Origin: Scenedesmus sp. ARA3
Lineage: Eukaryota; Chlorophyta; Chlorophyceae; Sphaeropleales; Scenedesmaceae
Direction: 5' to 3'
DNA: 64,000 nt
Assembly: GCA_004335835.1 (NCBI GenBank)
Contig: RWJK01001863.1
Coordinates: 219 to 64,218, forward strand
In this document: positions 39,415 through 64,000 of the stretch, piece by piece
Layout: every line of letters begins with the position of its first letter
Position numbering within the stretch: position 1 is the first letter of the stretch
Program-made: the position numbers and the translations under genes
The notes under the pieces: generated by a model
The model's database searches: none
Seen by the model: only the letters and a program-made list of their open reading frames with translations
What the model was told of the DNA's origin: nothing

Positions 39415-39465
39415 TCATGCTGTGGGCCACCAGGGCATCAGCCCCATGTCCTTCACGCAGTACTG
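39415..39465 (-). repeat. Tail echo of the PYROXD2 last exon
   Basis: A second copy of the exon end including the stop codon region (GTGGGCCACAGCATGA on the minus strand). It lies 126 bp downstream of the real stop at 39541, in the 3' UTR. Confidence 0.6.
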
Positions 39466-39503
39466 CCAATCACTAGCAGCCACGGTAAAACATAATCGCC
39501 TTG

Positions 39504-39508
39504 TTACA
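39504..39508 (-). promoter_or_regulatory. TGTAA poly(A) signal candidate for PYROXD2
   Basis: TGTAA on the minus strand, 33 nt past the stop codon. Pentamer and position suit a chlorophyte signal. Using it would exclude the tail echo at 39415-39465 from the mRNA. Confidence 0.4.
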
Positions 39509-61154: not shown

Positions 61155-62370
61155 AATGGCATCAACCTCAAGATTTCATGGGAGTGTGAAGCGCTGCTAG
61201 GGATGAGTATGGCGTGGAGCCGGCCTATGGCGCTGCTGGAAGCTGGATGGGTGTGGTCTGAAGGTGCTGTGTGTCTGCCAGTTGGCAGCAGCAGCAGCAG
61301 CAGCAGCAGCAGATCTTACTCGGAGCACTGGGCAGACAGCAGCTGTGCGCATTTGTGGGTTGGTGTAGTCCCTTTGTACAGGTCCCGCACACGTGACATT
61401 GCTAGTCAACAGCGCTGCAAGCGGCGGCATAAAGCCGGTGTTGCGGACATTGCTGCTGTTGTGTGGTGTGTGTTTGCGTTGTACTTCTGGTGTGTGTGGT
61501 GGAGGTTGCCTTGACTGTTGTACCATCCTGGTGAGTTGCCAGGCAACATAAATGCTGGTGTTTTTTCTATATGAATATCGCTGCAGCTGATTCAATGCAC
61601 ATTTCAACCCGGCAGGCTACCTGGTGGACGGGCGTTTGGAAAGAGGCTGCAATTGCTGTGCATGGAAACAGCTGCCCACTTGGCAGCAGTTGGAGCTGTG
61701 CCAGCTTTTGTGTTGAGGCCATAACAAGTAGGACTTGCAGGGTCTGCAGCGTGCTATATTGATTGACCACTTCTATTTGTTTAGGACACTGAGTTGTGAC
61801 CGGGATGCATGCTGGGGATCCAGCTGGATCTGCAGTGTGCTGTGTGATGGCTGCGAACGCGCTGTCGATGTTCATCATCATGTTGCGCCTCTTGTTGTCG
61901 CCACAGCAACCATGCGGCATGGTGGTTGGTTTTGGCATACATCATAATGCACACCCTACTCACGTGACCTGACAACGTTGCCTGGTTTTGGACCTGACTG
62001 ACTGTTGGCATTAACGGCTAATGCATCCATTGTAGCCGTGTCGCCTCCGTGTAGCCAGTACTGACTTATGCTGTAGCCTGCAGCACGCGTGCATCAGCAC
62101 CTGTGTTTGCCAGATGTCACGGACTGGGTGGTCTACGAAATTCATCATGATATGGGGCCATCGCGCGTATCATGCGCGTTGTGTGTAAGCGTGATGCTCT
62201 GTGCTCATGACGCTGGCTGCGGGGGTGAAGACTCTGCTAACACAACAATTGCTTGTGGCTCCTTGGCAGGCAGGATGTAACTACAGTACCATCCTATCAG
62301 CACGTCCTCCGTCACACGCCCTGCAGGCTCTGTGTCACAATCGCAGTTGTCACGCAATGCAATAATGACA
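61155..62370. other. Intergenic, convergent genes
   Basis: 1.2 kb between the ISA3 stop (+) and the MSH4 stop (-). Apart from the small ISA3 echo and a short CAG run near 61287, no structure or gene is recognised. TGTAA occurs near 62276. Confidence 0.4.
61200..61240 (+). repeat. Short tail echo of the ISA3 last exon
   Basis: GGCGTGGAGCCGGCCTATGG just past the stop repeats GGCGTGGAGCCGGTCTATGG from 61090-61109. Confidence 0.65.
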
Positions 62371-64000
62371 TCATGCTGCGCCTTGCGGCTGCTTCGCCGC
62401 TTGCAGCAGCAGCTTCTCAGCCTGCTGCTTCAGCCCCGCCAGCAGCGGCTGGCAGCGCCGCAGCGCAGCGGCAGCCGCCACAGCCGCCTCGACACCACCT
62501 GCAGGAGCGCTTGCAGTGTCTGCAGCAGCTGCTGTATCTGGCAGCAGGCCCTCTGCTGCTGCTTGGCGAGCCACACAGCCCAGCTTGTGTATGAGGGAGT
62601 AGACCTGCCCCAGGCAGCGTTCGCTGCGCGGCTGGCCCTGCTGCTGCCGCAGGCGCTGCTGCTGCTGCTTGGCCTCCAGCTGCTGCGCTACCTGCACGGC
62701 ATGCAGCAGATGCACAAAGTAGAGAACAAGTGCAGGTACATTTGCAACCTGGATTTTCAGTTTGGAACGAGTGTCAACACGGAACAGCATACGTTCCATT
62801 GTGATATCAGAAGCCAGAGTAATCGAGCTCTGAGGTCGACAGCAGCTGATACATCTCGGGCACCACAGCTACCAAGCTGCCAGCCGCAGCGCAGCACCAG
62901 GCCCCACCTGCATTGCTCGATCCGTGATGTGCTGCGGCAGCCCAGCTGTGCGCGCCAGTAGGATGCCGTAATGGCTGCATGCGCTGTCTGCCTCTGCTGC
63001 TGCTGGCGCTATGCTGCGCGTGTAGTGGATGTCATCACCCTGCAGCTCAACCTGCAAGGCACAGGACACAGCCGTGAACTGCCAGTTGCCACATGCATTG
63101 GCGCGCAAATGCATGCAGGCAAGTCACAGCCGAGCCTGTTGCTCTGCCTGGCAACCGCGTCTTTGCTGTGTGCAAGAGCATGCGGCTTGCTGTATGGTGT
63201 TGCCGCAAGCAACACCATGCTCCGAAACAAGCGCGGTGAAGTAAGTGCAGGAAACATAGCGATGCATGCGCGCTGACTAGTGGAGCTGCGGTGTGATGCA
63301 GCTGCGAGCACTGCGCGCGCCCCACACCTGCATGCGCCACAGCTTGCAGCTCGGGTAGATGGCTGCCAGTTCCTCCAGCTGCCTGCAGCAGCGTGGCAGC
63401 AGACAGGCAGCGGCATATAACAACAAAGCAGGTATGTTGCATGTGCCAATGAGCATTTGACAGGCTGTTGCATTCATCTGGGCCCAGCACAGCAACACCC
63501 AGACAGGGCAGACTTGCTCATCACCATCATCATAATGCGAAGCAAGCCATAGCAGCACCCGAAAAGGGCAAGCTTGCTGGCAATCCCATGCATACACGAC
63601 GGCATGCAGCAGCCCACCTGAAGCGTGTCGTCAGCAGCACGTGGGACCCCAGAGCCAGCAAGTACTCAGCCATGGCCCATGACAGCGCCACTACTAAAAT
63701 TTGCAATCCGTTAATGTACTCAGGACATGTCTGCCGTCAAAAAGGTGTACATAGATCTCGGCCTGAAGCGGGGACACGGGGCTGAGCGCTGCCAATTTTG
63801 CTGACACCCAGCAGCTCAGCGCCCACGCAGGGCAGCTTGCACAAGCAGCCCACCTGAAGTGCGTCGCCAGCAGCACGTGTGCCCCCAGCGCCAGCAGGTA
63901 CTCGGCCATGGCCCATGACAGCGCCACACCGTCAGCAGTGGAGGTGGCGCGCCCCAGCTCGTCAATCAGCACCAGGCTGCGCGGGCCAGCCCTGAGAGAC
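62371..64000 (-). CDS. MSH4: MutS homologue 4 (C-terminal exons, continues beyond window)
   Basis: Partial at the window edge. Exons in transcript order: >63990-63854, 63382-63328, 63051-62908 and 62691-62371, all joined in phase. The first contains the MutS Walker B and following ATPase region, LVLIDELGRATSTADGVALS, then YLLALGAHVLLATHF. The next reads RQLEELAAIYPSCKLW, then SHYGILLARTAGLPQHITDR. The tail SERCLGQVYSLIHKLGCVAR with an ALRRCQPLLAGLKQQ helix resembles the MSH4 C-terminus; ELGR with EYLL and ATHF favours MSH4 over MSH5. MSH4 pairs with MSH5 to stabilise meiotic recombination intermediates. The DELGRA site replaces the usual G-R-G, a mild change. The rest of the gene lies to the right. 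Confidence 0.75.
63618..63695 (-). repeat. Tail echo of the MSH4 ATPase exon
   Basis: About 75 bp repeating the exon end (WAMAEYLLALGS-HVLL-T region) with its GTGGGC donor, 236 bp downstream of the real donor at 63854. Several substitutions show it is older than most ISA3 echoes. Confidence 0.8.

What the first reader, a model, noticed from the sequence alone, without database searches (positions are those of the whole stretch)
39415..63854. Exon echoes: truncated exon copies with splice sites, always on the intron side
In ISA3, PYROXD2 and MSH4 (plus one in WDR82) I counted more than 20 truncated copies of exon ends lying in adjacent introns. The order never varies: acceptor-bearing head copies are upstream of the intact exon, and donor-bearing tail copies are downstream. 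A short tandem duplication spanning a splice junction gives exactly this order, because the copy next to the intron keeps the junction while the exon body stays whole. It implies that introns here grow by junction-spanning duplication and that transcripts must choose among several real-looking splice sites.
Basis: partly seen in the sequence, partly recalled or inferred. Interest (0 to 1): 0.88.

Follow-up and report, generated by a model that had tools for sequence, protein, structure and literature searches.

The report
Truncated exon copies crowding algal introns
In a green alga close to or identical with Tetradesmus obliquus, introns are littered with local copies of the ends of neighbouring exons, splice sites included; they come from duplications that favour a size of about 125 bases, and their exon part is oddly better preserved than the intron beside it.

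Summary
I count 26 truncated exon copies in ISA3 (19), PYROXD2 (6) and MSH4 (1), plus one in WDR82 outside the stated interval. None lies on the wrong side. In 291 kb of the same genome the rule holds in 61 of 63 single-junction pairs.

The geometry follows from tandem duplication plus selection for an intact exon. The process is not junction-specific. Local direct repeats form 103 clusters in 291 kb, 68 with a copy distance of 95-160 bp; inverted pairs number 2. K-mer offsets peak near 125 and 245 bp, weakly near 370.

Plain duplication and drift is not enough. Echoes look unconstrained and young (mismatches at codon positions 1/2/3: 10.4/11.2/20.1%). Yet 41 of 56 short-period pairs lack most of the unit's intron half, and neutral decay is rejected in 19 of 26 tested. 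Two units keep a homologous but far older intron half.

Best reading: ~125-bp tandem duplications whose exon half is re-copied from the selected exon while the intron half drifts. Main rival: repair copying of exon ends alone. New variant of a known kind. Splicing was not testable.

The parts
53260..61154 (+). ISA3 (isoamylase 3) exons E2-E15, intact copies; 13 introns of 198-879 bp
   Evidence: Open 677-aa frame, GT/AG junctions; Pfam CBM_48, Alpha-amylase, ISOA1-3_C; 100% rounded identity to a T. obliquus isoamylase
53020..53178 (+). two head echoes of E2 (period 121)
   Evidence: nearest copy against the exon: exon part 0 of 40 mismatches, intron part 24 of 78
55127..55221 (+). head echo of E6, period 136, 93.7%, 6 differences all at codon position 3
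55623..55746 (+). tail echo of E6 with donor, 88.8%, distance 246
56319..56621 (+). three head echoes of E8 in a ~125-bp array
57005..57594 (+). four tail echoes of E8 (57005, 57199, 57351, 57530); the last stops 16 nt short of the donor, 57351 lacks GT
57645..57705 (+). head echo of E9
58573..58628 (+). head echo of E11
59388..59459 (+). tail echo of E12 in two aligned pieces
60052..60240 (+). two head echoes of E14; the outer one carries two stop codons
60516..60566 (+). tail echo of E14, period 106
60744..60920 (+). two head echoes of E15; 60863-60920 lacks the acceptor
39541..45679 (-). PYROXD2-like oxidoreductase, 13 exons after the echo exons are left out; the 5' end of the gene is not settled
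40128..40216 (-). PYROXD2 tail echo 2: 5 of 84 differences from the exon, all third position
40396..40485 (-). PYROXD2 tail echo 1: 3 of 90 differences, all third position
43204..43286 (-). PYROXD2 head echo, decayed
43612..43718 (-). PYROXD2 tail echo with donor, 95.3%, distance 247
44223..44312 (-). PYROXD2 head echo with acceptor, period 157
39384..39456 (-). copy of the PYROXD2 C-terminal end and stop region in its 3' flank, period 127
63608..63691 (-). MSH4 tail echo with donor; intact copy 63844-63927; distance 236
18152..18188 (-). WDR82 head echo with acceptor (outside the stated interval)

Best explanation
Shown: this genome accumulates short local direct duplications with a strongly preferred copy distance of about 125 bp, a second peak near 245 and a weak one near 370. 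When a unit straddles an exon edge, the copy beside the intact exon is trapped in the intron with its splice site. The reverse order would break the reading frame, so selection removes it. Inferred: at birth the whole unit, intron part included, was duplicated. Afterwards the exon under selection acts as a master copy: local conversion or replication slippage between the two nearby direct repeats keeps renewing the exon-derived half of the echo. The intron half mutates freely in both copies, soon falls below the identity needed for exchange and drifts away. What remains is an exon-end copy whose homology tends to stop near where selection on the real gene stops, at the splice signal or the stop codon. 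The echo itself has no coding function.
For: Echo neutrality: mismatches at codon positions 1/2/3 are 156/1503, 169/1507 and 301/1496 in 78 echo pairs (one pair rests on a false exon, and without it the rates are 10.2, 10.7 and 20.0%); the third-position share is homogeneous over 67 pairs (p = 0.76). One birth process: copy distances up to 270 bp do not differ between pairs with and without intron homology (KS p = 0.49) or from pairs touching no exon (p = 0.41; low power, n = 15). Missing intron half: decay at twice the echo's divergence is rejected at p < 0.05 in 19 of 26 pairs. Exon divergence is the same whether the intron half is present (12 pairs: pos 1/2 20/221 and 17/220, intron columns 439/2235) or absent (41 pairs: 70/761, 79/768). 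Intermediates: the two PYROXD2 echoes differ at 6 of 84 exon-derived sites but 39 of 149 intron sites (Fisher p = 0.0003); the ISA3 E2 echo differs from its exon at 0 of 40 exonic but 24 of 78 intron sites, where half the intron rate predicts 0 of 40 with probability 0.001. Only 15 of 103 clusters touch no predicted exon, although intron and intergenic DNA is 183 of 291 kb; false exons called on echoes inflate this contrast.
Against: No patchwork of converted and unconverted tracts: mismatches are not significantly clustered (p = 0.21, 58 pairs; longest clean run p = 0.03). No residual homology at the expected register beside the end of the alignment, as if the intron half had never been there, although 6 of 16 ISA3 flanks, all at acceptors, beat shuffles at p < 0.05. 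Alignments end within 16 nt of the junction in only 36 of 70 junctions (median 9 intron columns in the 41 partial pairs). Homology of 40-100 bp is short for ordinary gene conversion (general knowledge). Full-unit pairs as a group fit plain drift, so clear intermediates are few. The PYROXD2 echoes, with third-position changes only, also fit coding constraint. All rests on one genome and mostly on predicted gene models.
Confidence: 0.48

Rival explanations
1. Repair-mediated proximal copying: a broken intron is patched with a short stretch copied from about one 125-bp step away. Only the exon end and splice signal are copied, so the intron spacer was never homologous. Selection removes insertions into exons.
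For: Intron halves show no trace of homology at the true register. In the 41 partial pairs the alignment enters the intron by a median of 9 columns. Closely linked repair duplications that include splice sites are known in primates (PMC2671141, abstract and passages).
Against: It does not predict pairs whose intron half is homologous but far older than the exon half (PYROXD2 echoes; ISA3 E2), nor why copies should tend to stop at splice sites, nor why copy distance is the same in pairs with full-unit homology.
Confidence: 0.28
2. Plain short tandem duplication followed by neutral drift.
For: Order of copies. Full-unit pairs fit: pos 1/2 about 8% and intron columns 19.6% in 12 pairs.
Against: Loss of the intron half at low exon divergence: rejected individually in 19 of 26 pairs; 15 of 16 ISA3 flanks scored below the lowest of 100 simulations at 17% divergence.
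Confidence: 0.09
3. Echoes are functional: alternative exon ends or splicing decoys kept by selection.
For: Splice sites kept in 57 of 64 echo junctions; PYROXD2 echoes differ from the exon at third positions only (3 and 5 changes), as does the E6 head echo (6 of 6).
Against: Equal rates at codon positions 1 and 2 and no overdispersion among echo pairs, stops, nonsynonymous changes and gaps in several, and continuous protein families when the echoes are left out.
Confidence: 0.08
4. Assembly artefact: unmerged pieces of diverged haplotypes.
For: The assembly is fragmented (1567 contigs) with N gaps, one inside the guanylate kinase array.
Against: Five echo copies in one ISA3 intron, copies with frameshifts, a shared 125-bp spacing, no gap inside the window's echo pairs (one gap in the whole window), no second copy of three probed exons apart from a 78% match on another contig.
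Confidence: 0.07

Closest known systems
[quoted passage not shown] abstract and Results section read)
   Same: A tandem duplication crosses an intron-exon boundary and carries acceptor, polypyrimidine tract and exon head.
   Different: There one duplicate yields a new spliced intron shown by RNA-seq. Here dozens of copies lie inside existing introns, on donor and acceptor sides, apparently unused as far as the protein families show.
Repair-mediated duplication by capture of proximal DNA (PMC2671141; abstract and passages)
   Same: Short closely linked copies; 4 of 824 donors are partial exon/intron pieces; the two fully duplicated exons tested there showed no coding constraint.
   Different: Rarely exonic in primates; no preferred distance was seen in the passages read; here exon-touching copies dominate and the distance is near 125 bp.
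Small tandem duplications at staggered breaks filled in by CST and Pol alpha-primase (PMC8355091; start of abstract, passages)
   Same: Direct, adjacent, sub-kilobase duplications of ordinary sequence.
   Different: Made in mammalian cells at Cas9 nicks; no ladder and no loss of half a unit is described in what I read.
Duplicated coding segments and intronization in Drosophila (PMC2891723; abstract and outline)
   Same: Regional tandem duplication near introns.
   Different: New intron positions are the outcome there; here the intact ISA3 chain is kept.

Membership tests
Short tandem duplication | Copies in direct orientation, close together | tested here: met
   223 direct against 2 inverted pairs within 1.5 kb; 68 of 103 clusters at 95-160 bp
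Short tandem duplication | Homology spans the whole copy-to-copy unit | tested here: inconclusive
   Aligned length at least 0.75 of the period in 40 of 103 clusters; 41 of 56 echo pairs with period up to 270 fall below 0.7
Intron gain by tandem duplication | Duplicate spans a splice junction | tested here: met
   63 of 78 echo pairs cover exactly one junction, 61 of them on the expected side
Intron gain by tandem duplication | A new intron is spliced | not testable with these tools
   No RNA reads available
Repair-mediated proximal duplication | Copy inserted near its template with unduplicated spacer | tested here: inconclusive
   Spacers mostly lack homology but intermediates exist
Repair-mediated proximal duplication | Microhomology at breakpoints, empty site in a relative | not tested
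   No relative's genome DNA was fetched; breakpoints not analysed
Tandem exon duplication / mutually exclusive exons | Whole exon copied with both splice sites | tested here: not met
   Both junctions covered in 3 of 78 pairs
Introner-like mobile introns | Similar sequence at many unrelated genes | tested here: not met
   Three probed exon stretches hit only their own locus, apart from one 78% match on contig C1168; only exon probes were used, and the tool scores best candidates only

The most novel reading that the evidence does not exclude
Selected exons act as master copies that keep their intronic echoes young by local conversion or slippage, in a genome whose duplications come in steps of about 125 bp, perhaps set by chromatin; introns thereby hold a long-lived, renewable stock of ready-made splice sites and coding ends.
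Probability: 0.4. Interest if true: 0.75.

Novelty: new variant of a known kind. Interest (0 to 1): 0.6.

Why it matters
It offers a genome where intron growth and supply of spare splice sites can be watched as a quantifiable mutation process with a preferred size. The contrast between the exon half and the intron half of one duplication gives a direct test for short-range concerted evolution between a selected sequence and its unselected neighbour. Practically, gene finders are misled: my own took several echoes for exons, and the listed protein of a relative, Scenedesmus sp. NREL 46B-D3, lacks the end of exon E8 and the start of E9, where this genome has four tail echoes and a head echo. T. 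obliquus UTEX393 was reported to have the longest mean introns (462 bp) of the five algae tabulated in PMC5966456 (passages).

Tried and rejected
A complexity filter used dropped long alignments; onwards use a corrected one, and the 125-bp peak is seen with both. A k-mer spectrum independent of BLAST confirmed the peak. Codon-length multiples do not explain the periods (no excess of multiples of 3). Patchy conversion tracts were looked for and not found. Residual intron homology was looked for and not found. The PYROXD2 comparison was off by one base for echo 1 and was redone; one donor anchor was also off by one base. The echo set leaves out comparisons of the last PYROXD2 tail echoes with their exon because the gene finder calls these echoes exons; it contains some echo-to-echo pairs and one pair built on a false exon (removed without change of pattern). 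The ISA3 E2 unit test mixed in copy 1 against copy 2 and was redone cleanly. One search stopped on an error and was rerun, where one pair was missing. The flank tests look only at pairs whose alignment is shorter than the period, which favours finding loss; counts of full-unit pairs are given beside them. My notebook says that the intron overhang has a median near 11; a recount gives 16 for all 70 junctions and 9 for the 41 partial pairs. Nine literature searches were run; two searches returned nothing, and none of the titles and abstract starts listed by the others showed intronic exon-end copies of this kind in algae. That is not proof of absence in print.

Full report
What was checked. The window is part of an 87-Mb assembly of 1567 contigs, contig C1448:219-64218. 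The hand-built ISA3 protein is 100% identical (rounded) to a Tetradesmus obliquus isoamylase record over its full length; by eye a few residues differ in the printed alignment. The organism is that species or a very close one (Sphaeropleales).

Gene models. ISA3 exons E2-E15 were set by hand from flanking signals: 14 exons, one open frame, GT donors at the 13 internal exon ends and AG acceptors at all 14 exon starts. A simple HMM gene finder, trained on long open frames and on this ISA3 model, returns these exons exactly (not an independent check, since ISA3 was in its training) and adds small false exons, several of them echoes. PYROXD2 reads through cleanly once the echo exons are left out.

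Echoes in the window. Self-comparison finds 43 repeat pairs, all direct. Exon-by-exon comparison gives 20 aligned ISA3 pieces that are echoes, 78-97% identical; these are 19 distinct copies because one tail echo aligns in two pieces. Mismatches by codon position are 28/385, 28/382 and 65/383, with 45 changed codons synonymous, 50 not, 2 stops and 8 gap columns. Weaker hits, mostly between triplet-rich intron ends, a 25-bp match between E15 and an E14 echo and a 22-bp match beyond the ISA3 stop codon, were not counted.

Sample. I had 291 kb of non-N sequence: the whole contig C1448, 40 kb of C250 and 19 further contig starts. It is not random across the genome: contig starts dominate and several carry long N stretches.

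Period. After correcting a filter, 223 direct pairs fall into 103 clusters; 68 have a minimal distance of 95-160 bp, 7 less than 95, 10 of 161-210, 10 of 211-270 and 8 more than that. Clusters of 80-170 bp have mean 124.9 and s.d. 19.3, n = 75. Exact 13-mer offsets show 86 loci at 100-159, 9 at 180-219, 51 at 220-279, 14 at 280-359 and 15 at 360-399, against 0.2 per 20-bp bin at 1-2 kb. Some of the higher steps come from arrays, but two-copy clusters alone also show 30 of 52 at 100-159 and 8 at 220-259.

Geometry. Of 78 pairs with one copy outside predicted exons, 27 are donor copies downstream and 34 acceptor copies upstream; 2 are on the wrong side, 3 cover both junctions, 1 covers a start codon and a donor, 3 cover a stop codon and 8 cover none. 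The order follows from selection: the reverse order would lie inside the exon or break the frame.

Neutrality. Positions 1, 2 and 3 differ at 10.4, 11.2 and 20.1%. Equal rates at 1 and 2 mean that the echo is not read as protein; the excess at 3 is the exon's own synonymous change. The third-position share does not vary between echo pairs more than chance (p = 0.76, 67 pairs); in all 156 pairs it does (p = 0.0006), led by a repeat in L023.

The puzzle. A duplicated unit should keep its intron half recognisable, at twice the echo's divergence. In 12 pairs with full-unit homology it does: 439 of 2235 intron columns differ. In 41 pairs of the same exon divergence most of it is missing; 3 more pairs are in between. 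Of 55 flank tests the median z is 0.37 and 6 exceed 3, most of them in what I read as multi-copy arrays. Simulation rejects the expected decay at p < 0.05 in 19 of 26 pairs with period up to 160 and at p < 0.01 in 8; at a 4-fold rate it is 7 and 3. In ISA3, 15 of 16 intron flanks score below the lowest of 100 simulations at 17% divergence, though 6 of the 16, all at acceptors, still beat shuffles at p < 0.05, so a weak trace or shared composition remains there. A register test beside the alignment ends finds none.

Intermediates. Two units in the window keep a recognisable intron half that is far older than the exon half. The two PYROXD2 echoes, both non-coding in the intact model, differ at 6 of 84 exon-derived and 39 of 149 intron sites. 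The nearer ISA3 E2 echo differs from its exon at 0 of 40 exonic and 24 of 78 intron sites. These favour renewal of the exon half over a birth without the intron half. The PYROXD2 echoes differ from the exon only at third positions (3 and 5 changes), which also fits constraint; the pooled data do not.

Splicing. 25 of 30 echo donors and 32 of 34 echo acceptors keep GT or AG. Whether they are used is unknown. Guanylate kinase, just beyond the window on the same contig, has four tail copies that the gene finder reads as exons without stops, with an N gap between two of them, yet its domain is continuous without them.

Conclusion. Conversion or slippage from the selected exon is my preferred cause at 0.48; copying of exon ends alone is the main rival at 0.28.

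Noticed in passing
window 33818-38724: Two diverged copies of a coding block about 3.5 kb apart (80.6% and 71.5% identity), predicted as one 15-exon gene with a repeated membrane-protein-like segment.
   Followed up: no
window 42379-42551: A perfect array of 34 bp, 5.1 copies, inside a PYROXD2 intron.
   Followed up: no
window 48166-48287: A perfect 61-bp tandem duplication that touches no predicted exon.
   Followed up: no
window 46354-46418: The only N gap of the window, directly after a run of C.
   Followed up: no
contig C1448, window coordinates 88317-91654 (beyond the window end): Guanylate kinase gene with four in-frame tail copies of one exon and a copy of its last exon beyond the stop codon.
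   Followed up: partly
P0002 (Scenedesmus sp. NREL 46B-D3) and P0007 (Raphidocelis subcapitata) in alignment A1: P0002 lacks the end of exon E8 and the start of E9, where this genome has echoes; P0007 is also altered in that stretch. Gene-prediction errors are likely.
   Followed up: no
window, many intron ends: CTG/CAG triplet runs lie beside many acceptors; their role in breakpoints was not tested.
   Followed up: no
291-kb sample: The peaks of copy distance near 125 and 245 bp, with a weak one near 370, are unexplained and resemble a chromatin-scale spacing.
   Followed up: partly
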